Virus record (IMG/VR): IMGVR_UViG_3300007725_000020
Location: 1-27,664 of that record
Reading direction: 5' to 3' (one strand)
Origin: a virus
DNA length: 27,664 bases
Shown here: positions 13,919 through 27,664 of the stretch, in pieces
Layout of the letters: each line of letters starts with the position of its first letter
How positions within the stretch are numbered: the first letter of the stretch is position 1
Translations under genes and position numbers: made by a program
The notes under the pieces: generated by a model
The model's input: only the letters and a program-made list of their open reading frames with translations
Databases searched by the model: none
What the model was told of the DNA's origin: nothing

Positions 13919-13926
13919 TTTATACC

Positions 13927-14958
13927 TTACCTAGTCAAGAAATCAAAGAACACTTTTTGCGGCATTCTTAATATATATGACGCGTTATCTTGCCATCCAA
14001 ATGAGATAAGAATATCATTACCATGCATTGCGGCGCCGGTAACAAATTCAATATTGTAATCTTCGCTTCTTACATGATCGTAATATGTACCAAGAAAGTG
14101 AAATTCTCGTGAAGCATGAATTAGATTCCAATCATTATCCCATACAACTACTCGGTGCGCATAGTTGCCATCTTTGCGCATAAAAGGATCTTTTAATAGA
14201 TTGGTTTCATGACAAAAAGCTATACGTTGATTATCATTAATACGTAAAACTTGCGAGCCACCTCTTAAATCTTTACCCATTTCAACAATTTTCTTAGGAT
14301 CATTTACAACATCAGTAGTAACTCTATTTTCAATGTCATAATGAATAAGCTGTGTTGGGTTAGTCCACTTTACAAAATGGTATGGCATATCTAAAACAGG
14401 CATCCAGTTCTTTTCACAGTAACTAGAATCATCACCCGGCGCAGGAATAGGATTACGAGAAATTTCTTTCCATTGACCATCTACAAAATCAATTTCAGCC
14501 ATTTCCATTCGGCCTTTACCTTTGTCGTCATAACAATCGCGACGTACACCGCAAAGGTACATTTTATCTTCCCAAGAAAATAGACGAGCATCCTCAAGAC
14601 CGATAAAATTCCAGGTTGGCTCAGTGTCAAAAGTCATGTGAACACGTTGCGCGCTTTTTAAATTTAGATTATGATCTAATTCACACATAACATTATGGGT
14701 GCGTAATGTAACATCATTTTCAGGATGTACGTATACTAAAGGACCCCATTGATGTGGAAAACGTTTACCTTCGGAATGGTAGAGTGTGTAGTTCACGTGG
14801 CGTACATTAACAAAGATTTTGCCTTTATGAACAAAAATCGAGGGGTTCATAATACCTGACTCGTTTCCAAGTACTTCCTTAGGAAGAATTAAAGGATGTA
14901 ATGAACCACCTCGTTTTAAGGCATAGGTGGCCAAACCACCCATGTGTAGATCATGCAT
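13927..14958 (-). CDS. GH130-like five-bladed beta-propeller protein
   Basis: The 343-residue protein resembles the GH130 family of mannoside phosphorylases and related five-bladed propellers. Family-like blocks are IMNPSIFVHKGKIFVNVRH at about 36-54, GLEDARLFSWEDKMYL at 120-135 (the GxEDxR block) and EKNWMPVLDMPYHFVKW at 182-198 (the EKNWxP block). LRGGSQVLRI and FVTGAAMHGNDILISFG further on match later blades. Known family members cleave or phosphorolyse beta-mannosides, but similar proteins of unknown activity occur in phages near structural genes. I cannot confirm the catalytic acid. It starts with an ATG behind a GGAG Shine-Dalgarno and leads the three-gene carbohydrate module. Confidence 0.75.
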   Translation of the reverse strand: MHDLHMGGLATYALKRGGSLHPLILPKEVLGNESGIMNPSIFVHKGKIFVNVRHVNYTLYHSEGKRFPHQWGPLVYVHPENDVTLRTHNVMCELDHNLNLKSAQRVHMTFDTEPTWNFIGLEDARLFSWEDKMYLCGVRRDCYDDKGKGRMEMAEIDFVDGQWKEISRNPIPAPGDDSSYCEKNWMPVLDMPYHFVKWTNPTQLIHYDIENRVTTDVVNDPKKIVEMGKDLRGGSQVLRINDNQRIAFCHETNLLKDPFMRKDGNYAHRVVVWDNDWNLIHASREFHFLGTYYDHVRSEDYNIEFVTGAAMHGNDILISFGWQDNASYILRMPQKVFFDFLTR

Positions 14959-14996
14959 AACAACTCCATTATAAAAAACAAAAGACTTATTATATA

Positions 14997-15329
14997 TTAA
15001 TTCCAGTTAGGAGTATAAGTCTTCATTATATTTTTTTCAAGTTTCTTGGCAAGCACGTTATCTATCATTTTAACATCTGACGGAGATAAGCTTGCTTCGA
15101 TCCAACCGACTACATGCTCTTTAGTCACTGAATCAAGAGCAATAAACTCAGAAGAGGTAACCTCAGCAACTGAGAATTTAGATTTTCCCAAGTATGTTGC
15201 AGTGTTACCAACTTCATCGGTTGCAATTTTTTTCCAGTGAACATATACAATTGAATCAGGCATTAATTCGCCATCAGGACCTGTTAGGTCTTGAGTACCA
15301 AGTTTTAATATTTGATATGTATAATTCAC
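14997..15329 (-). CDS. Small protein, paralogue of the 15349-15738 gene
   Basis: A 110-residue protein of unknown function with a GTG start at 15329-15327 behind AAGGAA. It aligns over nearly its full length with its upstream neighbour. Shared pattern: Y-T/W-x5-L, a short linker, a V-x-x-W/F-W-K strand, A/G-T-D-E-x-G-N, a F-x-A/V-A-x-V block, E-F/S-I/F-A-L/F-x-S-L/V, then a V-x-x-W-I helix. Such W-K-G-T/A-T-D-E-x-G-N proteins are common small conserved proteins in marine T4-like phages and may be virion parts. The pair points to tandem duplication followed by divergence. Confidence 0.7.
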   Translation of the reverse strand: MNYTYQILKLGTQDLTGPDGELMPDSIVYVHWKKIATDEVGNTATYLGKSKFSVAEVTSSEFIALDSVTKEHVVGWIEASLSPSDVKMIDNVLAKKLEKNIMKTYTPNWN

Positions 15330-15348
15330 GATATGTTCCTTAGATTAG

Positions 15349-15738
15349 TTATGCTTGAGGAGCAGTGTTTGCTTCTTCTTCAGCAGGAGCCCAAGGCAAT
15401 TCAGACGAAGATTTCTCAATAGTAAGAGAAGCATTAATCATATTCGTAATTTGTTGGTCAATATGCGCTTTGTAGTTTGCGTCAGAATTTACTACATTTT
15501 GAATCCAGCTAATAACATCAGCTTCTTGTAAAGATTCAAAAGCAGTAAATGAACCTGCAGGAACATTAGCAGCAGTAAAAGGGGTTGCTCCTGAGAAGTG
15601 TCCTTCATTACCATTTTCATCGGTACCAACAACTTTCCAGAAAGTTTGTACTACAGCATTAGGAAGGGTTGCACCCTCAGAGTTTACTTCATCACGAACC
15701 TTAAGGCTGGTGACAGACCAAGTGTAAGTTAGTGCCAT
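15349..15738 (-). CDS. Small protein, paralogue of the 14997-15329 gene
   Basis: A 129-residue protein that begins MALTYTWSVTSLKVRDEV and ends in an acidic Glu/Ala-rich tail (PWAPAEEEANTAPQA) which its paralogue lacks. The shared core includes QTFWKVVGTDENGNEG and a helical VISWIQNVV segment. There is no cysteine and no catalytic motif. It is the first gene behind two late-promoter-like octamers and a stem-loop, with a GGAGAA Shine-Dalgarno, which suggests strong late expression and a structural role. Function unknown. Confidence 0.7.
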   Translation of the reverse strand: MALTYTWSVTSLKVRDEVNSEGATLPNAVVQTFWKVVGTDENGNEGHFSGATPFTAANVPAGSFTAFESLQEADVISWIQNVVNSDANYKAHIDQQITNMINASLTIEKSSSELPWAPAEEEANTAPQA

Positions 15739-15821: not shown

Positions 15822-15876
15822 CATCTGTATCGTCATGTTTTGAGAGCAACTTTGTATCTCGCTTTTCTTCACTCAT
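15817..15876 (-). CDS. Possible 19-residue peptide (micro-ORF)
   Basis: ATG at 15876-15874 overlaps the end of the 2OG-oxygenase gene, with AGAGG about five bases before it. The frame encodes MSEEKRDTKLLSKHDDTDV and stops with TAA at 15819-15817. It is very charged and has no cysteine. The overlap and spacing look like coupled translation, but length alone gives little support and it may be chance. Confidence 0.25.
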   Translation of the reverse strand: MSEEKRDTKLLSKHDDTDV

Positions 15877-16435
15877 GTAAACCTCTATATAAAATAAGAT
15901 CAACAGGTAAGCAAACCCTCATATTAGAATAATCTGGATTTACTTGATGATAGGTAAAACTTGGAAATATTTTAAACTCTCCTGATTTTGGTGCATATAC
16001 CTTTTGTTTAAATAAAACATTAAATGCAGGATCATATCCACGATTTGCATTTGTTCTAGGATCCGAAAAGATAATTTCACCACCTAACTCATTTGCGCCA
16101 GCTAGTACATAGAATACAGCTGATAAATGAGAACCTCGATGATTATGAATAGGCATACTATATGGATTATTATTTGTTATCCATGAACGCATTGAATAAT
16201 CATCAAAATCTTTTATTGACTTGCCAATAGTACTAATCATATATTCGTCAAACTTTGAATAAGCTATAGCTTTAAAATCTTGTATAGCTTTATCTTGATT
16301 ATCGAATAAATTGCCACCGTCAGTTTCAGATTGTAGATTATTTAAATCGTAATTTATTAGAATATAATCTAATAAACCTGGAACTTCAAATTCACCCGAT
16401 CCAATTACTGTTGGCCACAAATTCTCAAAATTCAT
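15869..16435 (-). CDS. 2-oxoglutarate/Fe(II) oxygenase-like protein
   Basis: A 188-residue protein of the phage-type 2OG-Fe(II) oxygenase group (the family often named 2OG-FeII_Oxy_5). The family pattern is visible: PIHNHRGSHLSAVFYVLAG at about 95-113 with candidate metal His residues, a GGEIIFSDPR strand at 118-127, then PKSGEFKIFPSFTYHQVNP at 149-167 with the distal His at H163, and R173 as a candidate 2-oxoglutarate ligand. The substrate is unknown; family members hydroxylate proteins or small molecules. It overlaps the preceding gene by four bases (ATGA) and closes the radical SAM island, so it may modify the same substrate. It could also be a virion-associated oxygenase unrelated to the island. 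Confidence 0.82.
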   Translation of the reverse strand: MNFENLWPTVIGSGEFEVPGLLDYILINYDLNNLQSETDGGNLFDNQDKAIQDFKAIAYSKFDEYMISTIGKSIKDFDDYSMRSWITNNNPYSMPIHNHRGSHLSAVFYVLAGANELGGEIIFSDPRTNANRGYDPAFNVLFKQKVYAPKSGEFKIFPSFTYHQVNPDYSNMRVCLPVDLILYRGLHE

Positions 16436-17130
16436 GATGTAACCTTTTTCTTTAAATAATATCTTCCAAAGAATGTAGATGGGAAATTATCTAAAAGATC
16501 CGCAATTGTATTACGATCTGTTAAATGATTTTTAATTTCTACTTTTTTATCAGTCATTGGATACATTGACATTAAAGGAGTTCCATATTTTAATAAAACT
16601 TCATATGGTTCTTCTTTTACAGGAAATACTAAAAAGACATTAATTGTGTGTTGTTCGTAAAAGTTTAAAATTCCTGGTGATACCAAAATATCATGCTTTC
16701 TTAAATCTTCTGTATAATGACATTCGGTTAACATAAACTCTGTTTTATCAGAACCCTTAATAGCCCACGGTACGTGCAATTTTAAAATAGCTCGGTTTGC
16801 ATACAGCTCATTACCAACTTGTTCGTTAGAGTGTTGAGATGCTTCAAACTTCAATGGGCTGCGTTCAGGATTAACATATTTTACAGAACCGTTTGGATTG
16901 ACTTTAAAAATTACATCGGACCACAATTTAAAAACAATAGGTTTGCGAATGTAATTAACAACACCTGGACAAGCCTTTACTGTAGGACATGGGACGTGTA
17001 TACCAGACCTTGGATCAAATTCCTTAATGGTATTTTTGAGTTTTGACCACCAAGACGGTGTTTGCATTTTTATTTCTAGAGGCTGTAATTCAAAAACATT
17101 TCTATCATAAGTATAAGCATCTAATTTCAC
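16432..17130 (-). CDS. DUF6065-like protein of unknown function
   Basis: The 232-residue protein shows TPSWWSKLK (about 24-32), TVKACPGVVNYIRKPIVFKLWSDVIFK (about 49-75) and FLVFPVKEEPYEVLLKYGTPLMSMYP in the C-terminal half. The CP-GVVNY...PIVFKLWSD arrangement recalls DUF6065, a domain found in phage and bacterial clusters with Fe(II) oxygenases and known only by sequence. There is no clear catalytic motif. It overlaps the radical SAM gene before it and the 2OG oxygenase after it by four bases each, so all three are probably made together. The DUF6065 link is from memory of the pattern and is moderate only. Confidence 0.6.
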   Translation of the reverse strand: MKLDAYTYDRNVFELQPLEIKMQTPSWWSKLKNTIKEFDPRSGIHVPCPTVKACPGVVNYIRKPIVFKLWSDVIFKVNPNGSVKYVNPERSPLKFEASQHSNEQVGNELYANRAILKLHVPWAIKGSDKTEFMLTECHYTEDLRKHDILVSPGILNFYEQHTINVFLVFPVKEEPYEVLLKYGTPLMSMYPMTDKKVEIKNHLTDRNTIADLLDNFPSTFFGRYYLKKKVTS

Positions 17131-18212
17131 TGTTTATTTCCATCCATATAATTGAACCATAATCGCATTACACAATCAGGTAAATCTCTCACTCTATTTT
17201 TCCAATCCCACTGTGTATAACATCTAAATCCACATTTATTCCACCACTTACAAGATAAGCATCCATTCTCATCCATATATGCTTGCATCATTGAAGCGTT
17301 GTCTTTTCTATTTAGTGGTGTATTAAAATCTTCTTTTGTATATCTATCCCAACGACAGTTTGATGTAGAGTTATCAGGAAAGATAGTAACCTTATTTAAC
17401 GCTAAACAATGCATGTGGTTGTTATCATTATATATGAGATCTTTTATGGGATTGATGTCAGGATAGTTATGATATATGAATTTCAAAAACTCAAGATACT
17501 GACTATCTGATGGTATCAAATGATCAAAACCTTTATCAGGAATATAATCATCAAAATAAAAGTCATCAAACTTTTCGTATAAGTAATGAAAATATTCGTC
17601 GTCGTTCTTCATAAATTTTTCAATAGAAGGAACAGTTGCGACCATATTAATTGATGTAATATAATCTGCAAAGTATTCTATATTTTTGGCATATGGACCT
17701 TTAGTAGGACGACCGTCAAAATCATACGAACAAATAATATAAGACGGGATACCAGCATCGTTTAATTTATCAAGCAAGTTTCTAACTAACTCTCTTTTAC
17801 TAAATTGAAATGAAGTTACCCATACCACTTTAATAACATGATTATGTTTATCATATAACTTTTTAATTTCAAGTAGGAAATCGTAATATACATCGTAAGC
17901 CCAATCTGATATTCTATCTTGAAACAGCTCACCACCTACCATATTAATTTGACAAATTTGTACACGATCTTTTACTTTAATTAAATGTTCTTCAACAAGA
18001 GGCAGCTTTGAGAATATATCTTCGCGCGATAGACCAACAGTTGATGCTTTATCGTGGTGACAAAAATCGCAATTTAAATGACAGTTTTCAAATAACGTTA
18101 ATTCAATTTCGGCAATAGTAGGTCTCTTACTTTCTAGCAAGATCTTAGTCATTTCAAATTGTTTAGGATCGCCATCAGTAACATCAACTACTTCAATAAT
18201 ATTAGAGGCCAA
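17127..18212 (-). CDS. Radical SAM/SPASM enzyme (RS1)
   Basis: The 361-residue protein has a radical SAM cluster CHLNCDFC (C44, C48, C51) and a GGE motif (MVGGELF, about 91-97). A complete SPASM pattern follows: C269, C286, C318, C321, C327, C331, C347, with CX2CX5CX3C at CLSCKWWNKCGFRC. Such enzymes make radical modifications of peptides, using two auxiliary [4Fe-4S] clusters. The start is TTG at 18212. It lies eight bases after a strong AGGAGA and gives an 11-base overlap with the preceding gene; the next ATG is 20 codons in. Substrate unknown; the CHxS proteins of this island are candidates. Confidence 0.9.
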   Translation of the reverse strand: MASNIIEVVDVTDGDPKQFEMTKILLESKRPTIAEIELTLFENCHLNCDFCHHDKASTVGLSREDIFSKLPLVEEHLIKVKDRVQICQINMVGGELFQDRISDWAYDVYYDFLLEIKKLYDKHNHVIKVVWVTSFQFSKRELVRNLLDKLNDAGIPSYIICSYDFDGRPTKGPYAKNIEYFADYITSINMVATVPSIEKFMKNDDEYFHYLYEKFDDFYFDDYIPDKGFDHLIPSDSQYLEFLKFIYHNYPDINPIKDLIYNDNNHMHCLALNKVTIFPDNSTSNCRWDRYTKEDFNTPLNRKDNASMMQAYMDENGCLSCKWWNKCGFRCYTQWDWKNRVRDLPDCVMRLWFNYMDGNKQ

Positions 18213-18600
18213 ACCACATCTCCTCTTTGTAGTATTCGTAAATATCCGGCACCATGCCTTTATCTTCTTTGAAATCTAGTTTGCTTAAAATAGTGTCATA
18301 TGTTTCTTTGTCTTCTGAATAAGGAACAAAATATGGATCATTATTAAACAATAAACCAGGATCATCAAGTACTTCATAAAAATTTTCCCGGTAATCTCGC
18401 TCTAACCATTTTGCATAACAAATAGCAACAGCATAAGATTTGGCAGGATATATCCATTGATCTACATATTCATTAAAATGACGTAATGCATCTTCTATGA
18501 TATTATCAGACACGACAATATCTACCTTATTCAAGTCATCGGTATATTCTTTATGTATTAAATGAAACGCGGCTTGTCTAGCTTTCCAATCTTTCATCAT
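18202..18600 (-). CDS. Unrecognised small helical protein in the radical SAM island
   Basis: I do not recognise this 132-residue protein. It appears mostly alpha-helical and rich in aromatic and acidic residues (IIEDALRHFNEYVDQWIYPAKSY, WLERDYRENFYEVLDD, DIYEYYKEEMWFGL). One cysteine, no catalytic motif, no membrane segment. It overlaps the end of the previous radical SAM gene by 23 bases and the start of the next by 11, so it is embedded between two such enzymes. A partner or substrate-binding role is possible but not shown. The ATGATG start leaves two possible first codons. Confidence 0.65.
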   Translation of the reverse strand: MMKDWKARQAAFHLIHKEYTDDLNKVDIVVSDNIIEDALRHFNEYVDQWIYPAKSYAVAICYAKWLERDYRENFYEVLDDPGLLFNNDPYFVPYSEDKETYDTILSKLDFKEDKGMVPDIYEYYKEEMWFGL

Positions 18601-19489
18601 ACCAATCTAATAAACCTTTATATCCATTACAACTATTATCTAGATCTTTGACATAACGATAGTGTTCTGTTAAACAACCACCGTAATATTTGCAGTTGCG
18701 ACATATATCGGATACATTTTTCTCTGGTTCCATTTTAGCCCAAAGTTTGTATTCCTCATATGTATCGTATTCTAAGAAGTACTCTTTATCATATTTATCG
18801 AACTCTAATACAGCAAATTTACCGTTAGGCGTAATGTAAACATGATCATCGCTGAATGCACTGTACTTACCATCTAAAGCGTCTTCAATTAAAAACTCAT
18901 TTATAAAATCAAAGTTCTTTGGTGTTTTGGCTGTTATCCATTTTTTAACAAATTCTTCAAAATCTTTATGAGTAACATTATGCGCATTTGCTTGGTTAAT
19001 AGAATATGGTTTAATTTCTACCGAAGCAACTTGAGCACACATATTTAAAGTAAAGATCATGAACTCAACATCCATTTCTAAAACCTTTGGCGAAGCCAAA
19101 ATTAAAACCGCAAGTGGCTTAACCGAACTCATAATATTATTCAGAACGAACTGTTCTTTTTCACGAGCAGAAAAATCGTATGATACACTTATAGTAATGT
19201 CATCATCATTAAAGAAATCAGGTAATGCAGAGTAATTCGTATTTACATTAATTGGTCCGTCGTAATATTTTCTCATTACTTCTTTAATAGAATAAAAATA
19301 TTCAGGAGTTAACAAACCAATTTCACCTCCATATAAATCAATATGATCTATTGGATCGGTTATTTTTGACATTACTTCGTCTAATTTTTCTGGACTTATT
19401 CTATTCCTATTTGCTAATTGCTCAGGAGTAAGATAACAAAAGTCGCATCTAAAATTGCAGTAATAAGTTGGATTTATAGATAGGTTCAT
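18578..19489 (-). CDS. Radical SAM enzyme with twitch-like C-terminus (RS2)
   Basis: A compact 303-residue enzyme with CNFRCDFC (C11, C15, C18) almost at the N-terminus and a GGE motif (DLYGGEIG, about 51-58). The C-terminus carries CRNCKYYGGC and one later Cys (C263, C266, C272, C287). This is CX2CX5C...C without the fourth close Cys, so probably one auxiliary cluster (twitch type) instead of full SPASM. A TPNGKFAVLEF hairpin before it fits the twitch strand. It overlaps RS3 by four bases (ATGA). Substrate unknown. Confidence 0.87.
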   Translation of the reverse strand: MNLSINPTYYCNFRCDFCYLTPEQLANRNRISPEKLDEVMSKITDPIDHIDLYGGEIGLLTPEYFYSIKEVMRKYYDGPINVNTNYSALPDFFNDDDITISVSYDFSAREKEQFVLNNIMSSVKPLAVLILASPKVLEMDVEFMIFTLNMCAQVASVEIKPYSINQANAHNVTHKDFEEFVKKWITAKTPKNFDFINEFLIEDALDGKYSAFSDDHVYITPNGKFAVLEFDKYDKEYFLEYDTYEEYKLWAKMEPEKNVSDICRNCKYYGGCLTEHYRYVKDLDNSCNGYKGLLDWYDERLES

Positions 19490-20547
19490 ATCATTTTAAC
19501 CGATATCATATTAGATTCATTTACATAAGGGGTAACCAGCGACGGATCCAAACCATTCATTTGAAGAATACTTGGCGCTAATGTTTTCATTTGACGGCAA
19601 TGATCTTCTACAATTCCTTCACGCTTCATATCACGAATAGTTTTCTTGCAGCCATTACATATCTGGAACATTGGGCAAGTGAAACATGCCATCTTCATTG
19701 ATTGAATATTAGGATCTTGTTGAAGCGGCGTTACAAAACCACCTGACATTTCTTCTTCAAAATCTATAGGATAATCCATATCATCAGCAAATGATCCGCA
19801 ACTATAGTAATCACCACCCGGATTAAATGCTCTAATACCCGTATCGCAACTTCTATTTTGAGGACAAGTTGTACTGCAACCTCTATCTCTTAAATTACGA
19901 ACCATTTGTTTAGTGTTGTATTCCCACTCCGTCAATCCGCGTTCATATATTTCAACATATATTTTATAGATCTTACTTAAACGAAAAGTACTACCTTGTA
20001 CACCAGACGCCATAGCATAATTCAGTTTACACTCAACACCCATTTTCTTCGCAAGCAAAACATTATCAATTGCTCTATCTTCGTTTTCATCTACAATTAC
20101 AGAAATAAAGTCGGGTCTATATCCAACCAACTCTAGCATTTTATCTGATACTTTCCAAAAGTCTTCTTCACTAAAATCAGAATAATCACCTTTTAAACGT
20201 CCGCCTCCGTATTGGAAAGATGTAGTAATGCCCATTCGTGGATGTCTAAAAAGATCTAACCATTTTTCCGGTTTAACATAAAATGGCCAAAGATTACTAG
20301 TAAAGCTAATAGTGGCCGGCATATCGTGTTCATCTAAAAATTCTATAATTTTCCAATAGTATTGTGGATCTACCATTAACGGATCACCGCCATTTACAAT
20401 GATAGTATTTGTATCCGGGTATCGTTTTAGAAATCTAAAGATATAATCTAGATCTAACAATCCAGCGTTATCTGGGTCGATTGCAGTTGACGAACAAAAT
20501 GTGCATTTAAAGTTACACACTTCGGTTGGCTTGATGATTAGGTCCAT
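19486..20547 (-). CDS. Radical SAM/SPASM enzyme (RS3)
   Basis: The 353-residue protein has CNFKCTFC (C11, C15, C18) and GGD at 53-55 in place of GGE. The C-terminal SPASM set is C234, C250 (with GX4C at GGDYYSC), C288, C291, C297, C300 and C317. Two further cysteines (C224, C228) precede it, so an altered or additional metal site is possible. The close block is CX2CX5CX2C (CFTCPMFQICNGC), one residue shorter than usual between the last two. It follows RS4 by 17 bases and overlaps RS2. A late-promoter-like octamer lies inside the end of RS4. Peptide or protein substrate inferred from SPASM. Confidence 0.9.
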   Translation of the reverse strand: MDLIIKPTEVCNFKCTFCSSTAIDPDNAGLLDLDYIFRFLKRYPDTNTIIVNGGDPLMVDPQYYWKIIEFLDEHDMPATISFTSNLWPFYVKPEKWLDLFRHPRMGITTSFQYGGGRLKGDYSDFSEEDFWKVSDKMLELVGYRPDFISVIVDENEDRAIDNVLLAKKMGVECKLNYAMASGVQGSTFRLSKIYKIYVEIYERGLTEWEYNTKQMVRNLRDRGCSTTCPQNRSCDTGIRAFNPGGDYYSCGSFADDMDYPIDFEEEMSGGFVTPLQQDPNIQSMKMACFTCPMFQICNGCKKTIRDMKREGIVEDHCRQMKTLAPSILQMNGLDPSLVTPYVNESNMISVKMI

Positions 20548-20564
20548 GATATACTCGATATACT

Positions 20565-21641
20565 CTATAGCTGTTTCACTGGGATTATATTACTATTTAT
20601 TTTGTATTCTGCAGATTTTATCCATCCTTTTTCTGCGGCTAATGTCATCATCAAAGTTTTAGGCGCAGGACATACATCATCCATCCAAGTAAGTTGGTGA
20701 CAGTCAGAATGGCAATATTGAAATACGGGACAACTATAACAACGTTCATCACGTTGGTGAAGTTCTTTGTCAATAATATCCATGCGTTTGGTGCAAGTTC
20801 TTACAATACTCGGTGGTTCATCAATAGTTCCATACCAATCAGTAGGAGCCGAGTTAGGGCAACCTGCAACAGTTCCATCAGCATTTATTGTATGCAATTT
20901 TTGTTCGCAATCCCTACAAAATGTTCCACTGAAAAATAGATTATTATCGAATTTATCGTATACTGTTCTAAGGAAATTATTCTCTACTGGATGGCCCTTA
21001 GTTGTCTCGTGCATTTTCATCCAAAACTTATCTAAGTCTCGGTTATGAGGAAAGATTGCTGGATTGAGTTCAGCATTACCATTATGAGTTAGACGTTCGT
21101 ATGAAATACTATCGACACCTAATGAATGCATGTAATCAGCAATCTCAAGTGGATCCATTTTTACGACATCAGTAGATACAGAAATGAAACATTGAACATA
21201 TATTCCTTCTGCAACTAAACGTCTTACATTATCTTCCCAAAGCTTTCTTTGCTTATCATTTGCAAAACGAATGTTAGGATCCCATGATGTACCAAGGGAA
21301 TTTAGGTTTTCCTTGAAGAATTTAATGTGCTCAGGTTTGAGCTTATAGGTAAGATTTGTTGTAATACCATGACCGCATCTATCACCCCATTTTTCTTTGG
21401 TCATATTATAGAAGGTCATAATATCATCTATAGGAGCAAGCATCGGCTCACCCCCGTGGTATTCAAAATGGATTTGATTATCTCCGGTATCTAACCCATT
21501 ACACCAATTAGCAGTCTTTACTGGATCAAAATATATTTTTCTACCATTTGTACCGGACGTAAAACAATGAGAGCAATTGAGGTTACAAGTCTCCGTTGTT
21601 TTCACGTATACGATTAAGTGTTTCTGAGTCGCCAATGCCAT
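20565..21641 (-). CDS. Radical SAM/SPASM enzyme, anSME-like (RS4)
   Basis: The 358-residue protein has CNLNCSHC (C19, C23, C26) and GGE (YHGGEPML, about 61-68). A full SPASM set is C245, C261 (GX4C at GTVAGC), C301, C304, C310, C314, C324, with CYSCPVFQYCHSDC. The order of motifs resembles anaerobic sulfatase-maturating enzymes and other peptide maturases, which oxidise Cys or Ser or form crosslinks. A third nearby Cys (C242) precedes the set. The ATG at 21641 lies inside the previous gene (59-base overlap) and lacks a clear Shine-Dalgarno. I keep it because it adds the usual first strand (HLIVYVKTT) before the CxxxCxxC; a GTG shortly before the cluster is the alternative. Confidence 0.9.
   Translation of the reverse strand: MALATQKHLIVYVKTTETCNLNCSHCFTSGTNGRKIYFDPVKTANWCNGLDTGDNQIHFEYHGGEPMLAPIDDIMTFYNMTKEKWGDRCGHGITTNLTYKLKPEHIKFFKENLNSLGTSWDPNIRFANDKQRKLWEDNVRRLVAEGIYVQCFISVSTDVVKMDPLEIADYMHSLGVDSISYERLTHNGNAELNPAIFPHNRDLDKFWMKMHETTKGHPVENNFLRTVYDKFDNNLFFSGTFCRDCEQKLHTINADGTVAGCPNSAPTDWYGTIDEPPSIVRTCTKRMDIIDKELHQRDERCYSCPVFQYCHSDCHQLTWMDDVCPAPKTLMMTLAAEKGWIKSAEYKINSNIIPVKQL
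20594..20601 (-). promoter_or_regulatory. Possible internal late promoter before RS3
   Basis: AATAAATAGTAATA on the minus strand lies within the last codons of RS4, about 47 bases before RS3. The octamer fits the set seen before virion genes, but it is inside coding sequence (Lys-Ile-Asn-Ser-Asn codons), so chance is likely. Confidence 0.25.
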
Positions 21642-22053
21642 AAGATACTATCAAACCTTTTTCATAATTTAGTGCACGATGTTTTGTGTTGCTTTTTATA
21701 TATGCGAACTCGCCGGACTTAAGCGACACATGTTTACCATCTATTTCTAGATCTTTAATTCCATCTAAACATTTTATTATAACATCAACTGGGTCAGTAT
21801 GTAAACCAAAAGTTGGGCCATTTTTCTTATTGAAGAAGATATGAGCAGTACCGTTTATATCAAGGTTCTTTTCATATTGCTCAACCTTTATTGTAAAATC
21901 TGATAGAATGTAACTAGATATCTTTGCTTGGTAAACCCAAAAGTTTTCAGCATCGACATAATGTTGTTTGCCGTCATGATCTATAATAGAAACATCGTGA
22001 TTATTAAAGCATTCTTCGCTCAACAAAAAAGTTTCAAATTCCAAAAAGGTCAT
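21583..22053 (-). CDS. Cupin/JmjC-like Fe(II) oxygenase candidate
   Basis: The 156-residue protein has the single-domain cupin layout of small JmjC/cupin_8-type oxygenases: GLHTDPVDVIIKCLDG with H85 and D87, then a GKHVSLKSGEFAYIK hairpin and KHRALNY with H125. Together these form an HxD...H facial triad, as in 2-oxoglutarate/Fe(II) enzymes. Some cupins with this motif bind metal without being oxygenases. It overlaps the RS5 gene by four bases (ATGA) and extends 59 bases into RS4. Its place between two radical SAM genes suggests it acts on the same substrate. No substrate can be named. Confidence 0.72.
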   Translation of the reverse strand: MTFLEFETFLLSEECFNNHDVSIIDHDGKQHYVDAENFWVYQAKISSYILSDFTIKVEQYEKNLDINGTAHIFFNKKNGPTFGLHTDPVDVIIKCLDGIKDLEIDGKHVSLKSGEFAYIKSNTKHRALNYEKGLIVSYGIGDSETLNRIRENNGDL

Positions 22054-23207
22054 AAGTTCTTTCCGGCAAATATATCTTTTATTTCTTGTAGTTCATTGTC
22101 ATCATGGATAGCAAACTTTCTTCTATAACCATTCTTATCTGCTTCAACTGAGTAATCGGTCCAATCATACATTTTAATAGCAGATAAATTATAGTTGTGC
22201 ATATGTTTAATCATATTATCTTTTGGTGCAATACACCTATTGACACCAAGGTAATCTCGTAGTAAAATAATCTTACGATTATAGCAACTAAAAAACATTG
22301 GGCAAGTTTCACATTCAGTACCTTTTGCTCTTTCAATTTGAGAGTCAACTGCTATCTTCACATCTTCAAATTTTTCAATTTTAAATATATCATCGTACAC
22401 TGACATATTTTCATATAGGAAAGGAGATATCCACCATTCGCCTCTCTTATAATTCAAAACAGTATAATTGATACCAGCGTGTGAATGATCTATCATAATG
22501 TTGTTTATTCTAGTATCTTTACTTAGTACATTAAAGTAATCATTAAATGTATCAAGTGATTCTAAAATAATATTTGGTTTATGTGATCTTGAAACTGACG
22601 GAATAAAATCAATTGTGGTACTAAATTCTTTTACAATATCGGCATGTAATTTAGAATAGTCTAATCCATAATCTTTTATATTTACTAGAAATGTAAAGAC
22701 TACGTCATGCTCACTATTTTCACTAATATAATTTAGTTTACGTCTAATATTTTCTACATAATTAATATGATAAAATTTATGTGGATCAATTGCAATACCA
22801 ATTTCAATTTCGGTATTTAAACTAATACTATTTCTTAACCAATCACACCACTTATCTAATTCATCATCAATAAGAGTAGTAATAAAAGCAAGGATAGGAG
22901 AATGCTCATTAATCATGTCGACTAAATGAGGCATTACATCATAGAAGTTTTCGGATGATAGAAAATCAGTTGGGCCTATAATAATTTCATCTATTAATAG
23001 ACCCTTATTGTGAATATCGTTTATAAATTCAATTGCTTTTTCTAATTGATGTTCATCACTTGCATTACCGCGTCTATGAACAAAACATCCTGGACATTGG
23101 TGACGACAGCCATCAAGAACATCTAATTGTAACTTTACCGCCGAGACCGGTTTTGTCACAGTCTCGGTTGTAAGAGCGTGATAAAGATTATTCTTGATTA
23201 TCGGCAT
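22050..23207 (-). CDS. Radical SAM enzyme, IGPTDF subfamily, twitch-like C-terminus (RS5)
   Basis: The 385-residue protein has CRHQCPGC (C34, C38, C41). In the usual GGE place it has IIIGPTDFLS (about 76-84). The C-terminus carries CETCPMFFSC and C325 (C299, C302, C308, C325), a four-Cys twitch-like set. It is clearly paralogous to RS6 (25130-26308): both share C..xC.GCFV, IGPTDF-[LF]-S, and a CX2CX5C block followed by a helix and a final Cys. A 60-residue tail after the last Cys has no motif I know. Function unknown; a peptide modification role is inferred from context. Confidence 0.85.
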   Translation of the reverse strand: MPIIKNNLYHALTTETVTKPVSAVKLQLDVLDGCRHQCPGCFVHRRGNASDEHQLEKAIEFINDIHNKGLLIDEIIIGPTDFLSSENFYDVMPHLVDMINEHSPILAFITTLIDDELDKWCDWLRNSISLNTEIEIGIAIDPHKFYHINYVENIRRKLNYISENSEHDVVFTFLVNIKDYGLDYSKLHADIVKEFSTTIDFIPSVSRSHKPNIILESLDTFNDYFNVLSKDTRINNIMIDHSHAGINYTVLNYKRGEWWISPFLYENMSVYDDIFKIEKFEDVKIAVDSQIERAKGTECETCPMFFSCYNRKIILLRDYLGVNRCIAPKDNMIKHMHNYNLSAIKMYDWTDYSVEADKNGYRRKFAIHDDNELQEIKDIFAGKNL

Positions 23208-23215
23208 TTACTTGC

Positions 23216-24022
23216 CTATTCTGTTTCTTCTACAAAAGGCTCAACATCAATAGTAACAAAGAAACCTATCGGCATCATTTCAATTATTCTATTAACAAAT
23301 TTAGTTTGATTCATCATATAGAATAAATCTTTTGCATAGTACTTCGGCGCATCATTAAAAATAGATTTATTATATTCCATTTTAAGACCAACACGATTAA
23401 GTACCAAGAAAAATGCATCGATACCCATTGTGACAATATTAATGATATTAGGACCGCACTGAACCGGTTTATCTAAAACTTTTATTTCGTCCACAACACC
23501 TTTTAAATCTAATTCTTTTTCTTTAGATTCATCAGACATATTTTCATAAATTTTAGATAATGCAAATGGAACAGTTTGCGCAATAGTATCTATTAAGTCA
23601 TTTACCAATTTTTCATTATCTTTGATATATTCAAAAATTTGTTCTTCATTAAATAATGCGTACAACTCTTTATCAACCGGTGTTAACTCATGATCGAGTC
23701 TATGCTTAATGATGTTTGCAACAATACGATCTAATAAAGGACATTCTACTAAAAACTCTGAAGTAATATATTCAGTAATTAAGTCAGAGTCAACAGCAGA
23801 AAACGATGCCTTAAAGTTTGTATTAGCTAGATAAATTATGATGTGTTTAGCAGATAGCTTTTCACGTGATTCTGCGTAGTTAACCCACAATTCAAAATCT
23901 TCTTCAGATTCTTTTTGTTTATAGATTTCTACTAAATCTTGAGGTGATAGCGGAAGAGGATAGCACTTTGCATCTACCTCATCCGCCGTTTTGATTCTTA
24001 CTTCAATTTGTTCATCATTCAT
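23216..24022 (-). CDS. Unrecognised protein in the radical SAM island (268 aa)
   Basis: I do not recognise this protein. It is mixed, mostly helical and acidic (EIYKQKESEEDFELWVNYAESREKL; LIDTIAQTVPFALSKIYENMSDES), with a central segment DKPVQCGPNIINIVTMGIDAFFLVLNRVG and a C-terminal hairpin (MPIGFFVTIDVEPFVEETE). There is no catalytic or membrane motif. I chose the ATG at 24022, preceded by AAGGTG at seven bases; a GTG nine bases earlier is the longer alternative. It lies ten bases after the 366-residue gene and eight before RS5. It could be a peptide-binding partner of the radical SAM enzymes, but no RRE (PqqD-like) fold is evident by eye. Confidence 0.65.
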   Translation of the reverse strand: MNDEQIEVRIKTADEVDAKCYPLPLSPQDLVEIYKQKESEEDFELWVNYAESREKLSAKHIIIYLANTNFKASFSAVDSDLITEYITSEFLVECPLLDRIVANIIKHRLDHELTPVDKELYALFNEEQIFEYIKDNEKLVNDLIDTIAQTVPFALSKIYENMSDESKEKELDLKGVVDEIKVLDKPVQCGPNIINIVTMGIDAFFLVLNRVGLKMEYNKSIFNDAPKYYAKDLFYMMNQTKFVNRIIEMMPIGFFVTIDVEPFVEETE

Positions 24023-24032
24023 GTATATCACC

Positions 24033-25133
24033 TTACAATTTATATTTGTGTATCAAGTATGGAATACGATTTTGTCTTTTAGCAAAGAACTGAACGTCTG
24101 TATCCAGTAATTTAATTTCCTCGGATAGATTATTTATGTCCCAATTACGTTCTAAAACCTTTTTAACGGTTGGCAATAAGTGATTAATTTCATTATATTG
24201 ATCGTTATATTCCCAGCCATCAATAGTATCAGTTTTACTTGTATGAGCAGCTTTAAAGTTTGGATCATCTTTTACTTTATTCCACAAATCAATCAATTTG
24301 TAGATGGCAACTGAGTAATTGCCAGTATTAGCTGCATCAACATAAACATCTTTTAGGAATTGTTTTTTATCTGTAGCATATCCATTTTCAGGTGTTGCAT
24401 TCTCGTTCATCCAGTCAATAACTGCACAAATATAACCTAGATCTCTTCTTTGCGCTGTAAATTGTTGAATTACATCTTTTGCGATTTCAGCCGAATGGAT
24501 GGTAAATTTTTCAATTAATAAACTTCTAACATCTACGCATGGGTATTTTTCGTTGAGAAAAAATAATAAATCATAACTGAAGTTTTTACCATTTTCAAAT
24601 ACCACACCATAATCAGGGAATTCAGGATCTGCTAATACAGCTTCACAATGCGCTCGTGCATCAGCCATAGTATCAGAATCACGCATTAGAGTTAAAATGG
24701 TATCTGTTTCAATTACTGTATTTACAAAGTCAACCGCAATTGCATTCACATCGTACGATGGATCTGTGTAAAAATTAGAAGCACGCAATAGACCAGCAAT
24801 GTATCTTACATACACATTTAACATTTCACTTTCATGTGTATATACTATAATAGCTTTTTCGCTATTTTGTATAAAATCAATAGAACTTGCTTCATCCCAT
24901 TGGATGAAATTTAAATATGTAGAAGCGCCATCTCTAATAGCGTTAGCAAGTTCTACATACTCAACTGTAGCAAGCTGAGCTCCTTCTAATGAAGGACCAG
25001 GATGAACCACAAAAATTTTGCGAGGATCTTTATTGTGGTAGAATGAATTTAATTCGGCAACAACAGTCTGGATATTTGTCGTATTCGTAATATACTTTTT
25101 GTTGTTTAAGTAATATAGGCTTTGGCCGATCAT
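24033..25133 (-). CDS. Unrecognised protein in the radical SAM island (366 aa)
   Basis: I do not recognise this protein. Residues 39-51 (KIFVVHPGPSLEG) look like a strand-loop-helix of an alpha/beta fold, and a later strand AIIVYTHESEML could belong to the same sheet. The C-terminal two thirds are helical (ALTYAKDV-type segments such as SAEIAKDVIQQFTAQRRD). There is no nucleotide-binding or Fe-S motif. It overlaps the RS6 stop by four bases (ATGA) and is followed by the 268-residue gene. Its coupling to RS6 suggests a shared role. This is the second gene of the island after the CHxS proteins. Confidence 0.65.
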   Translation of the reverse strand: MIGQSLYYLNNKKYITNTTNIQTVVAELNSFYHNKDPRKIFVVHPGPSLEGAQLATVEYVELANAIRDGASTYLNFIQWDEASSIDFIQNSEKAIIVYTHESEMLNVYVRYIAGLLRASNFYTDPSYDVNAIAVDFVNTVIETDTILTLMRDSDTMADARAHCEAVLADPEFPDYGVVFENGKNFSYDLLFFLNEKYPCVDVRSLLIEKFTIHSAEIAKDVIQQFTAQRRDLGYICAVIDWMNENATPENGYATDKKQFLKDVYVDAANTGNYSVAIYKLIDLWNKVKDDPNFKAAHTSKTDTIDGWEYNDQYNEINHLLPTVKKVLERNWDINNLSEEIKLLDTDVQFFAKRQNRIPYLIHKYKL

Positions 25134-26308
25134 CCCGCTTTTCCTCCTAGGATTTTTAATGCGTCATCATTCCAAGTAAATGCGAATGGATTGTAGTGAT
25201 CTAACACTTCTTTATTAAGTACACAACCATCGATGTTCAAAGTTTCCTGCGCTTCAAATATTAATCTGTTGGCGCAAGCAACCGCAAATTTACAACCGGA
25301 ACAATCTTTAACTTTCGTAGATCTATTTATCCCTTTGGCTACTAATTGATTTTTTCTTTCAAGGATCTCTTCAAACGATAAACCTGTTACATCAAGATTC
25401 TTATTCTTAAGGAAGAACGCTTGTTCGTGTAACATTACATTTAAATGAGTCGTAGGTCCATTTTCGCCCGGAATAATTGTTAAACCAACAAAGTTAATCG
25501 AGTTACAATATAGGTTAGCCATTGACATAACGGTTTCGTTATAGTTGCCTTCATCAATAACTCGACCTAAGAATTCGTTCCAACTAAATAGGTTACTACG
25601 TTGAACATGTTCTGATTGTGCTCTTGAGAAAGCTGGGTTCATTTCAACGATTGTTTCATATTCTTCAGTAGCTTTCTTAATAATTCTATTGTATGTTTCT
25701 TTATCAATCTTTTTGCCAACAACATTAGATGCTTGTAAAGTCCAAGACCAATCCATTTTCTTAGGAGTGTTTTCTTTAAAAAATTTAACTTTACGCATTA
25801 CTTCTTCGTAATAGATAATATCATCGAGCATCTTATCTATTTTACTAATTGGCATAATAAATTCGATAATCATCTCACGACGGAATTTATCTTCATCATC
25901 TAGAATATTAAAGATTTCTTGGACACGTTCCATAGTTGCAACATCAAATTTGGCAGGTGCCGCAATACGTGCTCCAGTATGCTCACGCATAATTTCTTGA
26001 ACTGTTTTGTTATTAAGAATATCTTCAGTATTGTTTGCACTAAAGAAATCAGTCGGACCAATTACAAATTCTCTTAGATTTAATCCAGTTCTTTTTACAC
26101 CATCGGCTAATTCCTTAGCACGATCTATGATTTGCTGATTCATTGTTGGATCAATATTTTTATCAACGAAACAGCCTAGACACGCCTGTTCGCAACCAGA
26201 TAAAACTTCCATCTGAATTAGTACATCAAATTTAACTGCATCAGAAGGCGGAAGACTCTCTGGTCCCGAATAACGCATTTGTTTACAATATGACTCTTGC
26301 ATTGCCAT
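25130..26308 (-). CDS. Radical SAM enzyme, IGPTDF subfamily, twitch-like C-terminus (RS6)
   Basis: The 392-residue protein has CEQACLGC (C39, C43, C46). A variant second motif FVIGPTDFFS (about 81-90) stands in place of GGE. The C-terminus carries CSGCKFAVAC and C362 (C336, C339, C345, C362). It is the radical SAM gene closest to the CHxS genes, two bases after the second one ends, and its Shine-Dalgarno (GGGAGAAG) lies within the codons for the RGRR end of that gene. It is paralogous to RS5. Being first in the island and immediately next to the putative substrates, it is the best candidate to act on them, though that is inference. Confidence 0.87.
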   Translation of the reverse strand: MAMQESYCKQMRYSGPESLPPSDAVKFDVLIQMEVLSGCEQACLGCFVDKNIDPTMNQQIIDRAKELADGVKRTGLNLREFVIGPTDFFSANNTEDILNNKTVQEIMREHTGARIAAPAKFDVATMERVQEIFNILDDEDKFRREMIIEFIMPISKIDKMLDDIIYYEEVMRKVKFFKENTPKKMDWSWTLQASNVVGKKIDKETYNRIIKKATEEYETIVEMNPAFSRAQSEHVQRSNLFSWNEFLGRVIDEGNYNETVMSMANLYCNSINFVGLTIIPGENGPTTHLNVMLHEQAFFLKNKNLDVTGLSFEEILERKNQLVAKGINRSTKVKDCSGCKFAVACANRLIFEAQETLNIDGCVLNKEVLDHYNPFAFTWNDDALKILGGKAG

Positions 26309-26361
26309 GATTATCTTCTCCCTCTCGATCCATGGCAGCTATAATGACAGCTAGCATGACA
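26300..26361. repeat. 62-base direct repeat, copy 1
   Basis: Identical in all 62 bases to 26689-26750, 389 bases apart. It covers the codons for the CHxS end of the downstream paralogue, its stop codon and the first three to four codons of RS6, including that gene's ribosome binding site. Confidence 0.95.
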
Positions 26362-26697
26362 TAGATAAGCACTAATGTTTCTACTTGTTATTCTTGGTTC
26401 TATCACGTCAACAGTTCTTCTTACAAGCGTTGCTAAGGTGTCAACGATGTCTTGTGGGTAAATAATATTACCAGTTCTGATTCCGGCTGTATCGTAATAA
26501 TTATTATATGTACTATTTGACGCACCTACATATTCAAAACGATGGTAATAGTTTGCATAAGTACTATAACTCCAAGAGCCGCCAGTAGCACGAACATATA
26601 CTCGAACAGTTACCGTAATTGTTCTATCAAAGGTTCTTAACTGAGCTCCACCATATGTTTGAATCCACGAGTTTATATCAGCTGGTGACATTGCCAT
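26311..26697 (-). CDS. CHxS-tailed protein B, putative modification substrate
   Basis: The 128-residue protein has a beta-rich body (QLRTFDRTITVTVRVYVRATGG, WSYSTYANYYHRFEYV, RTGNIIY), a helix (TLATLVRRTVDVIEPRI) and the end CHASCHYSCHGSRGRR. The three cysteines (C113, C117, C121) all lie in the tail in a regular C-H-x-S tetrad repeat; the body has none. About 60% of residues match the upstream copy. The body resembles a small fibre-associated domain. The tail could carry thioether, oxidised or other radical SAM-made changes, or bind a metal through Cys/His. Its SD region (AGGGAGAAG) is formed by the tail codons of the preceding paralogue. I know of no characterised protein with this tail. 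Confidence 0.88.
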   Translation of the reverse strand: MAMSPADINSWIQTYGGAQLRTFDRTITVTVRVYVRATGGSWSYSTYANYYHRFEYVGASNSTYNNYYDTAGIRTGNIIYPQDIVDTLATLVRRTVDVIEPRITSRNISAYLCHASCHYSCHGSRGRR

Positions 26698-26750
26698 GAT
26701 TATCTTCTCCCTCTCGATCCATGGCAGCTATAATGACAGCTAGCATGACA
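26689..26750. repeat. 62-base direct repeat, copy 2
   Basis: Identical to 26300-26361. It covers the CHxS end, stop and following gene start at the first paralogue. The flanking bodies of the two genes differ widely, so this segment is either recently copied, homogenised by recombination or held by selection. Confidence 0.95.
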
Positions 26751-27080
26751 ATATAGAGCACTAATGCTTCTATTACTAATTCTACCTTCTATTAAATCTA
26801 CTGTGCGTCTAACGACACTACTAATTGAACCGATAACATGGCTTGAATATATTATATTGCCAGTATATATGCCGCTATTTAAATAATTATTGTATATAGA
26901 TGTAGGAGCATTTACATATTCAAAGCGCTGATAATAAAGCCCGCTCGTCGTATAACTCCAAGAGCCGCCAGTACCGCGAACATATGCATATACTCTAAAA
27001 TATATAGTTCTGTCAAATGTGCGCAACTGAACGGCTGCTTGGCTTTGCAAATTATTATTTAACGTAGAATACGTTGCCAT
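26700..27080 (-). CDS. CHxS-tailed protein A, putative modification substrate
   Basis: The 126-residue paralogue has the same layout as protein B: QLRTFDRTIYFRVYAYVRGTG, GGSWSYTTSGLYYQRFEYV, YTGNIIY, VRRTVDLIEGRISNRSISA and the end CHASCHYSCHGSRGRR (C111, C115, C119). It overlaps the tail fibre stop by one base (TAATG), so translation is likely coupled to the fibre. The identical 16-residue tail on a divergent body suggests the tail is the functional core and the body a docking or display domain. It could be a small adhesin or fibre-tip subunit. The RGRR end could be a protease site or nucleic-acid contact; nothing seen decides this. Confidence 0.88.
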   Translation of the reverse strand: MATYSTLNNNLQSQAAVQLRTFDRTIYFRVYAYVRGTGGSWSYTTSGLYYQRFEYVNAPTSIYNNYLNSGIYTGNIIYSSHVIGSISSVVRRTVDLIEGRISNRSISALYCHASCHYSCHGSRGRR

Positions 27081-27664
27081 TATACTTTAACCTCAACCTC
27101 ACCATTTTCAGCATTACCTAGTGCAATACCAATTATATCATGATTATTTATTCCTTGAGTGCCATAGTCAACACCCTTACCTTTACCATCACGATCAGCA
27201 ACAACCCATTGACCTTTCTTAACTTCACCATTTACTTTAACAGGAATACGTCCTTTAAGCGCAATAAATGGATTCATCTTAGATTGAATTGAATCGTCAT
27301 CAAGATAATCAATGTGTTCGTTCATACGGTATGCTGGGTTAGTAGATACCGCACCGGCAACTGGCATTCCAGGTTGATATAATGTTACTTCAGAATCACC
27401 GTCAAGATTGATACCTAGTACTGTACCTGGTTCATAGATTTCGTCAGCCTCATAACGTTCCGCCAAGTCCGCCCAACGAGCTGAAGTTGCAGTACCAACA
27501 AATACACCATCATTTGCAATATAAGATCTATCTGAGCCATCTTGTCTAAATTGAACAATACGGTTAGAGTTACCACCTGATACAATGTAGAATCTGTTAG
27601 AGTGGTATTCAATCTTACCTACATCGTTACCTGGGTTGCCAGTCCAAGATTCATCGCCTTCTTC
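27080..27664 (-). CDS. Tail fibre protein, C-terminal end (5' part beyond window)
   Basis: The frame is open from the right edge to the stop at 27080, giving 194 residues of the C-terminus; its start is outside the window. A TTG at 27466 in the same frame is internal, not a start. The sequence has a YHSNRFYIVSGGNSNRIVQ beta segment, then ARWADLAERYEADEIYEPGTVLGI and PVAGAVSTNPAYRMN. This combination (DLAErYeADe-YEPGTV, AGVVSTNPAYxMN) is typical of the distal conserved part of phage tail fibre and spike proteins that end in a folding or trimerisation domain. It binds the host or supports fibre folding. The CHxS genes follow at once. Confidence 0.85.
   Translation of the reverse strand, partial: EEGDESWTGNPGNDVGKIEYHSNRFYIVSGGNSNRIVQFRQDGSDRSYIANDGVFVGTATSARWADLAERYEADEIYEPGTVLGINLDGDSEVTLYQPGMPVAGAVSTNPAYRMNEHIDYLDDDSIQSKMNPFIALKGRIPVKVNGEVKKGQWVVADRDGKGKGVDYGTQGINNHDIIGIALGNAENGEVEVKV
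27145..27152 (-). promoter_or_regulatory. Possible internal late promoter before CHxS genes
   Basis: GGAATAAATAATC on the minus strand holds the AATAAATA octamer, 65 bases before CHxS protein A. It is inside tail fibre codons, so it may be chance; if active it would let the CHxS proteins be expressed above the fibre. Confidence 0.25.

What the first reader, a model, noticed from the sequence alone, without database searches (positions are those of the whole stretch)
15869..26308. Ten-kilobase radical SAM island inside a phage late operon
Seen: six radical SAM genes, two Fe(II)-oxygenase-like genes, a DUF6065-like gene and three unknown genes in one strand, mostly with ATGA overlaps, between tail fibre and neck genes. 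Six such enzymes in one operon is unusual even for bacterial peptide clusters and more so within phage virion genes. Cost to the phage suggests strong benefit, such as altering the receptor-binding tip or evading a defence.
Basis: partly seen in the sequence, partly recalled or inferred. Interest (0 to 1): 0.9.

Follow-up and report, generated by a model that had tools for sequence, protein, structure and literature searches.

The report
Radical enzymes that mature fibre tips
A marine virus of bacteria carries a workshop of rare radical-chemistry enzymes that appears dedicated to chemically finishing a short cysteine-histidine tail on a small protein encoded next to its tail fibre, and the same workshop turns up in unrelated giant phages and in the chromosomes of Bdellovibrio-type bacteria.

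Summary
In detail: six radical SAM (rSAM) genes, a 2OG-Fe(II) oxygenase, a cupin with an oxygenase-like HxD...H triad and four genes of unknown function form one operon in the fibre-neck interval. 'DUF6065' was not confirmed. Two genes just upstream (26311-27080) belong to it: both proteins end in CHASCHYSCHGSRGRR.

Tail and enzymes go together. Tail-first (78 viral stretches): helper family U271 follows in 44 of 44 loci with room, and rSAM 3 precedes in 45 of 45 single-CHxS loci with room. Enzyme-first: tail present in 24 of 24 loci with room. All six isolated phages with the enzymes have it, as do 16 of 18 enzyme-positive Bdellovibrionota genomes, where the cassette is chromosomal and usually beside a prepilin fused to the tail-fibre chaperone domain S74. 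The tail is about 88% identical between pairs; the rest of the protein is dissimilar.

Best reading: a multi-rSAM system that modifies the C-terminal CHxS tail of a fibre-associated attachment protein. Chemistry, virion location and benefit are inferred. It is RiPP-like but fails the HxsA test. Ten literature searches found no description.

The parts
27080..27664 (-). 3' end of tail fibre gene (C-terminal 194 aa; 5' end off the record)
   Evidence: PHROG tail fiber protein E 4e-11; the same domain lies upstream of CHxS in 17 of 17 architecture-B and 16 of 22 architecture-A loci with room
26700..27080 (-). CHxS protein 1 (126 aa): folded domain + C-terminal CHASCHYSCHGSRGRR
   Evidence: AF2 domain pLDDT 79 with the tail disordered
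26703..26750 (-). codons of the 16-residue CHxS tail of protein 1, the proposed modified segment
   Evidence: conserved in 139 distinct proteins
26311..26697 (-). CHxS protein 2 (128 aa), tandem paralogue, same tail
26314..26361 (-). codons of the CHxS tail of protein 2
25130..26308 (-). rSAM 1 (CEQACLGC; CX2CX5C...C auxiliary set)
24033..25133 (-). U366, unknown, seen with the tandem-CHxS architecture
   Evidence: no Pfam or PHROG hit
23216..24031 (-). U271, unknown helper encoded close to CHxS throughout
   Evidence: 44 of 44 loci with room; alignments
22050..23207 (-). rSAM 2 (CRHQCPGC)
21583..22053 (-). cupin with invariant HxD...H and Lys, oxygenase-like
20565..21641 (-). rSAM 3 (SPASM type), the one next to CHxS in architecture A
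19486..20547 (-). rSAM 4 (SPASM type), 59-67% identical to ten aligned homologues from diverse phages
18578..19489 (-). rSAM 5
18202..18600 (-). U132, unknown, PHROG 20737
   Evidence: recurs in cassettes
17127..18212 (-). rSAM 6 (SPASM type)
15869..16435 (-). 2OG-Fe(II) oxygenase PF13759

Best explanation
The island is a dedicated post-translational maturation system. Its substrates are the two small proteins encoded just upstream, each a folded domain ending in three C-H-x-S units and R-G-R-R. SPASM- and twitch-type rSAM enzymes, helped by the cupin/2OG oxygenases and U271, act one after another on that tail, most likely cross-linking or otherwise modifying the Cys/His/Ser units, to give a rigid or metal-binding end. 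The RGRR end, which stays nearly constant while the middle varies, is probably the recognition handle. The finished protein is assembled with the neighbouring fibre and serves attachment. SHOWN: the genes, intact iron-sulphur motifs, exclusive linkage of tail and enzymes in phages and bacteria, linkage to fibre genes. INFERRED: that the tail is modified, the chemistry, incorporation into the virion, and the attachment role.
For: Linkage both ways: U271 in 44 of 44 and rSAM 3 in 45 of 45 CHxS-first loci with room; CHxS in 24 of 24 enzyme-first loci with room, 19 distinct. Among 50,697 phage records the same 7 (6 phages) hold rSAM 4 and rSAM 6, and all 6 have the tail. Bdellovibrionota: the strict tail occurs in 5 of 368 genomes, all among the 18 with rSAM 4; 11 more of the 18 have variant tails ending R(G/S)RR near U271. 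The tail is conserved (median 88% over 16 residues) on dissimilar domains (score 0.19), and the two domain families are not detectably related. 93 of 129 proteins have no Cys outside the tail. The tail is disordered in both AF2 models. Fibre linkage; S74-prepilin linkage. In phiM12, one of the window's nearest TerL relatives among isolates, only two small ORFs, one noted as fibre-assembly-like, lie between fibre and gp13. Atu_ph07: the ESI-MS/MS virion gene cluster is given as CDS 170-215, and the CHxS gene is gp170.
Against: No chemistry has been seen. The Atu_ph07 proteomics table itself was not read, so detection of gp170 is inferred from the cluster boundary. Neither CHxS model resembles a solved fibre or adhesin. 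6 of 22 architecture-A loci lack the fibre-domain match upstream. Bacterial CHxS proteins show no obvious signal peptide by eye, which is awkward for a surface role. 2 of 18 rSAM 4-positive Bdellovibrionota genomes gave no tail (short or cut regions). L036 has a four-unit tail ending SSGGW, not RGRR.
Confidence: 0.66

Rival explanations
1. The CHxS protein is a precursor of a released RiPP-type peptide or metallophore made during infection; the N-terminal domain is a large leader and the tail the product.
For: Peptide-maturing SPASM rSAM resemblance, an isolated terminal core with repeats, oxygenases; disordered tail.
Against: No recognisable peptidase or transporter in the window's island. 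The product segment is nearly constant while the 'leader' is hypervariable. It lies in the structural gene block beside fibres; in Atu_ph07 the CHxS gene opens a virion-protein cluster.
Confidence: 0.14
2. The tail is a metal-binding tip (compare His-bound iron in T4 gp37 and P2 gpV tips, recalled) and the rSAM enzymes serve another substrate; linkage reflects a shared fibre locus.
For: Three Cys-His pairs at a free end; fibre neighbourhood.
Against: Exclusive two-way linkage of tail and enzymes across unrelated phages and bacterial chromosomes with different gene orders.
Confidence: 0.09
3. The enzymes modify a host molecule (envelope glycan, nucleotide or defence component) and the CHxS protein is their scaffold or carrier.
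For: Weak viperin-family resemblance of some rSAM proteins; sugar-type genes follow in this window.
Against: Viperin model 16-26 bits against a cut-off of 180. The same cassette in bacterial chromosomes beside fibre-like prepilins does not look like counter-defence.
Confidence: 0.06
4. Shared ancestry and synteny only: the genes travel together as neighbours in the late operon without working together.
For: Many marine loci are close relatives.
Against: Co-occurrence persists in unrelated jumbo phages and in Bdellovibrionota chromosomes with shuffled order and strands; 0 of 350 rSAM 4-negative Bdellovibrionota genomes have the strict tail.
Confidence: 0.05

Closest known systems
rSAM-dependent RiPP pathways (sactipeptides, ranthipeptides, cyclophane RiPPs such as Grr/Dar/Dyn)
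   Same: A small gene with a conserved C-terminal segment next to SPASM/twitch rSAM enzymes; best, but weak, NCBIfam resemblances are to such maturases.
   Different: Four to nine rSAM genes per locus; a folded domain instead of a short leader; no recognisable peptidase or transporter; nearly invariant tail on variable domains; sits among virion or fibre genes.
His-Xaa-Ser system (HxsA/HxsB/HxsC/HxsD)
   Same: HxS repeats at the C-terminus and two or more rSAM enzymes (system description recalled and in part from PMC9062424); one bacterial variant tail here reads CHSSHSSHSSHSSRGRR (L297).
   Different: CHxS proteins do not match HxsA (no hit, or 16 bits against a cut-off of 121.65); the rSAM proteins are far under the HxsB/HxsC cut-offs.
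Bdellovibrio mosaic adhesive trimeric (MAT) fibres (PMC10769870)
   Same: S74 chaperone domain in a predator's fibre-like protein, here in genes beside bacterial cassettes.
   Different: MAT fibres carry a ~130-aa beta-rich domain after a signal peptide; 'pilin' and 'radical SAM' do not occur in that paper's main text. Ours are prepilin-S74 chimeras with a rSAM cassette.
Anaerobic sulfatase maturases and QhpD-type protein maturases
   Same: rSAM/SPASM enzymes finishing a protein; solved sulfatase maturase 4k37 matches the rSAM 3 profile at E 4e-7.
   Different: Single enzymes for one enzyme substrate (recalled); not for a terminal repeat tail.
Tail fibre assembly genes beside fibre genes
   Same: Occupy the same slot between fibre and gp13 in phiM12.
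   Different: Small proteins, not a ten-gene redox operon.

Membership tests
Radical SAM superfamily | CxxxCxxC cluster motif | tested here: met
   6 of 6 window genes
Radical SAM superfamily | auxiliary-cluster (SPASM or twitch) cysteines as in peptide maturases | tested here: met
   SPASM-type set in 3 of 6, CX2CX5C...C set in the other 3; invariant in the alignments of rSAM 3, 6, 4 and 5
RiPP biosynthetic pathway | ribosomal precursor with conserved core encoded beside modifying enzymes | tested here: met
RiPP biosynthetic pathway | leader/core division with proteolytic release and export | tested here: inconclusive
   no Pfam peptidase, transporter or PqqD/RRE hit among island genes at the thresholds used, but four genes are of unknown function
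RiPP biosynthetic pathway | modified product demonstrated | not testable with these tools
   needs MS
His-Xaa-Ser (Hxs) system | precursor matches HxsA (TIGR03979 or HxsA3) | tested here: not met
   0 of 2 window proteins at E<=0.1; of 6 other CHxS proteins tested at E<=1, only L297 hits, 16 bits against a cut-off of 121.65
His-Xaa-Ser (Hxs) system | rSAM proteins match HxsB/HxsC | tested here: not met
   best 33.3 bits against 370 (HxsB) and 20.6 against 267.9 (HxsC)
Phage virion attachment protein | gene adjacent to tail fibre in the late structural block | tested here: met
Phage virion attachment protein | protein present in virions | tested here: inconclusive
   Atu_ph07 virion cluster starts at CDS 170 = the CHxS gene; Supplementary Table S5 not readable here
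Phage virion attachment protein | fibre/adhesin fold | tested here: inconclusive
   no clear fold match for the window protein and none in PDB for the architecture-A protein; BFVD matches of the latter include an Atu_ph07 protein of 296 aa, the length of its CHxS protein
DUF6065 | match to the Pfam model | tested here: not met
   0 of 11 homologues
Bdellovibrio MAT fibres | S74 chaperone domain | tested here: met
   9 of 10 prepilin-like neighbours tested
Bdellovibrio MAT fibres | ~130-aa beta-rich domain after the signal peptide | not tested
   described in PMC10769870 (passages)

The most novel reading that the evidence does not exclude
A previously undescribed, horizontally shared 'fibre-tip chemistry' system: a battery of radical SAM enzymes builds a modified Cys-His-Ser end on a small tip protein used by tailed phages and by Bdellovibrio-type predators, two unrelated kinds of bacterium hunter, to grip or breach other bacteria.
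Probability: 0.4. Interest if true: 0.96.

Novelty: categorically new. Interest (0 to 1): 0.9.

Why it matters
I know of no phage described as building a virion or fibre component with radical SAM chemistry (recalled; and not found in the ten searches named in the report). Four to nine such enzymes kept beside a fibre gene, in phages as unrelated as marine T4-like and giant Chimalliviridae, imply a strong and general benefit, most simply at attachment. The same module in the chromosomes of Bdellovibrionota, beside pilin proteins fused to a tail-fibre chaperone domain, would link phage and predator attachment. The isolated phages (S13, FLC8, Atu_ph07, DT01, Phosso) make the idea directly testable by gene deletion and mass spectrometry.

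Tried and rejected
DUF6065: rejected. HxsABCD membership: rejected on model cut-offs. Viperin-like counter-defence: only weak shared rSAM-core similarity. Plasmid spread: no rSAM 5 match in 72,556 plasmid records. Myxococcota (another predatory phylum): rSAM 4 in 0 of 377 genomes; without a positive control in that phylum this is weak. Fold of CHxS: no clear match for the window protein (BFVD, none at E<=0.001; PDB best Z 3.6) and none in PDB for the architecture-A protein. Direct profile comparison of the two CHxS domain families: probability 5.5%, not related by this test. Idea that CHxS evolves faster than the enzymes, as a receptor binder might: not supported among the Chiangmaivirus-like loci (CHxS identity 0.81-0.97, rSAM 3 0.85-0.91). 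Genome-contig pattern hits L242, L243, L244 carry no cassette and were set aside as chance. Rows dropped from counts: L043 and L096 (no complete CHxS ORF under the filter), L244 (spurious), L036 (left out of the 139-protein tail table by its four-unit tail, but kept).
Full report
WHAT IS THERE. The window is a 27,664-base IMG/VR virus record with all large genes on the minus strand. The six rSAM genes have intact CxxxCxxC motifs; three carry a SPASM-type cysteine pattern and three a shorter CX2CX5C...C pattern. One gene is a 2OG-Fe(II) oxygenase (PF13759), one a cupin whose HxD...H and a lysine are invariant in 19 aligned homologues. DUF6065 was not confirmed. Five of 14 junctions are 4-base overlaps and no gap exceeds 17 bases.

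CHxS TAIL FIRST. A tblastn with one CHxS protein found only three annotated phages, Burkholderia FLC6, FLC8 and S13, matching little more than the tail. The FLC8 and S13 loci hold the same kinds of genes: cupin, rSAM, CHxS, U271, more rSAM genes and two 2OG oxygenases. A pattern scan of IMG/VR for the tail gave 78 stretches. With HMMs of the window's proteins, 76 loci with a CHxS ORF were scored: U271 lies within 3.5 kb downstream in 44 of 44 loci with room, an rSAM in 43 of 44 (in L033 the rSAM is just beyond), rSAM 3 within 2.5 kb upstream in 45 of 45 single-CHxS loci with room, the cupin in 42 of 45. Two architectures exist: A (cupin-rSAM 3-CHxS-U271-rSAM 6/4/5, usually one CHxS) and B (fibre-CHxS-CHxS-rSAM 1-U366-U271-..., tandem CHxS). 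The window is a B-type.

ENZYMES FIRST. Scans with rSAM 4 (80 of 320 relatives kept) and rSAM 5 (80 of 297 kept) are independent of the tail. Of the loci L097-L239, 24 reach far enough past U271 to include the CHxS place; 24 of 24 have it (19 distinct by U271 sequence). A first count gave 20 of 24 because four have Ala or Asn in place of a Ser. In 50,697 phage records, rSAM 4 (E<=1e-30) and rSAM 6 (E<=1e-8) hit the same 7 records, 6 phages: FLC6, FLC8, S13, Pseudomonas pPa_SNUABM_DT01, Sinorhizobium Phosso, Agrobacterium Atu_ph07. In the last three the ORF between rSAM 3 and U271 ends CHTSCHTSCHSARGRR, CHTSCHASCHSSRSRR and CHSSCHASCHNSRSRR. The closest terminase relatives of the window, the phiM12 group (60%), are not among the 7. 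In phiM12 only two small ORFs, one noted as fibre-assembly-like, lie between fibre and gp13, so the island fills the fibre-accessory slot.

NOT ONLY PHAGES. A genome-contig pattern scan gave 13 loci: several look like phage contigs inside MAG bins, three carry no cassette (L242-L244), and four are Bdellovibrionota-type (L247, L249-L251). Around two of the latter the flanks are ordinary chromosome (by eye). In the phylum of G001, rSAM 4 (E<=1e-40) occurs in 18 of 368 genomes. The strict tail pattern occurs in 5 of 368, all among those 18 and in 0 of the 350 others. Fourteen further regions were read: 12 have an ORF near U271 ending in such a tail, 11 of them variants (for example CHGNFPPPCHGSRGRR, CHTNVPTPPPCHASRGRR, CHSNHCSHSNHGSRGRR, CHSSHSSHSSHSSRGRR, CHSNCYTPPPKSRSRR); 2 (L288, a contig of 8.5 kb; L298, 12 kb read) do not. 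Altogether 16 of 18. The variants were found by reading near U271, not blind. In G113 the cassette lies in a 4.15-Mb contig between respiratory genes and rpsB-tsf-pyrH (gene names by eye). A prepilin-like ORF is present in 11 of 12 bacterial cassette regions on contigs of 14 kb or more (for G358 counted in the adjoining fetched flank L304), against 1 of 9 flanking 20-kb regions, by a motif rule of mine. 9 of 10 such proteins tested carry Peptidase_S74, the tail-fibre chaperone domain; the exception is in L304, and L299 and the second L304 ORF were not tested. Two loci add a 570-579 aa protein, in L258 with weak radical SAM and B12-binding matches. The rSAM 4 tree groups the 14 bacterial sequences with modest support (78/88) among phage ones, so the direction of transfer is open.

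WHY THE TAIL IS THE LIKELY SUBSTRATE. Over 400 random pairs of CHxS proteins, the last 16 residues are 88% identical (median), the rest scores 0.19. In 139 distinct proteins the three C-H pairs and three of the four final R/G/R/R residues never change (the pattern scan selected part of these, but loci were found by other segments). 93 of 129 have no Cys before the tail. AlphaFold models give a folded domain and a disordered tail in both architectures (pLDDT 79 and 86 overall; about 48 at the end). The two domains are not detectably homologous; the A-type model's viral matches include a 296-aa Atu_ph07 protein, the length of its CHxS protein. One tail on different domains, always beside the same enzymes, is what a modification target looks like.

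WHERE THE PROTEIN GOES. The fibre domain lies upstream of CHxS in 17 of 17 B-type loci (within 1.5 kb) and 16 of 22 A-type loci (within 6.5 kb) with room. For Atu_ph07, Attai et al. 2018 (PMC6102473; abstract, passages and the structural protein section read) report virion proteins by ESI-MS/MS mostly in three clusters, one being CDS 170-215. The record's tail sheath gp140 and endolysin gp141 match the paper's numbering, and gp170 is the CHxS gene. That the cluster starts exactly there suggests gp170 was detected; the table was not available to me. S13 needs flagella to infect (PMC11898562, passages); no link to CHxS is claimed.

MECHANISM. Best reading: U271 and/or an rSAM recognises the RGRR end; SPASM rSAM enzymes act on the repeated C-H-x-S units (their weak best resemblances are to thioether-, cyclophane- and sulfatase-maturing enzymes, all far below the curated cut-offs); the cupin/2OG enzymes oxidise further; the result is a rigid or metal-binding tip on an attachment fibre. 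Which bond is made is unknown.

KNOWN OR NOT. Ten searches of the held library (listings read) found no description of the system. The FLC6 (PMC8066314, passages), S13 (PMC11898562, passages) and RP12/RP31 (PMC5468394, passages) papers list individual enzymes only. The RiPP-mining paper PMC9062424 (passages) discusses His-Xaa-Ser motifs in bacteria. The library lacks most subscription papers and preprints.

Noticed in passing
window 11925-15738: A second accessory block follows the island: two DUF7936 genes, a 343-aa and a 412-aa gene without family match, and a cytidylyltransferase-cupin fusion. It recurs beside many island copies but is absent from others.
   Followed up: partly
L256-L258, L286-L299, L304: Bdellovibrionota chromosomes carry CHxS cassettes beside prepilin proteins fused to the tail-fibre chaperone domain Peptidase_S74.
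   Followed up: partly
L257 3571-5310; L258 13568-15280: Two Bdellovibrionota cassettes add a 570-579 aa protein; the L258 copy has weak radical SAM and B12-binding matches, possibly a methylation step on the tail.
   Followed up: no
L256, L258, L286, L290-L293, L296, L299: A small protein (100-132 aa; several start MNRR and look Tat-like by eye, some end in a GW-x-x-S-like motif) recurs beside bacterial cassettes.
   Followed up: no
L036 560-1141: Variant CHxS protein on a 504-kb contig with four repeat units and a SSGGW end instead of RGRR.
   Followed up: no
L006 13842-15057; L007 16873-18050: Two dihydrofolate reductase-type genes sit inside the Burkholderia jumbo phage version of the cassette.
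   Followed up: no
L035 11753-13467: Two long CHxS proteins (309 and 260 aa) in tandem in an architecture-A locus, unlike the usual single copy.
   Followed up: no
window 6884-8971: Long gene in the gp15-like position with a lectin-like middle part by eye.
   Followed up: no
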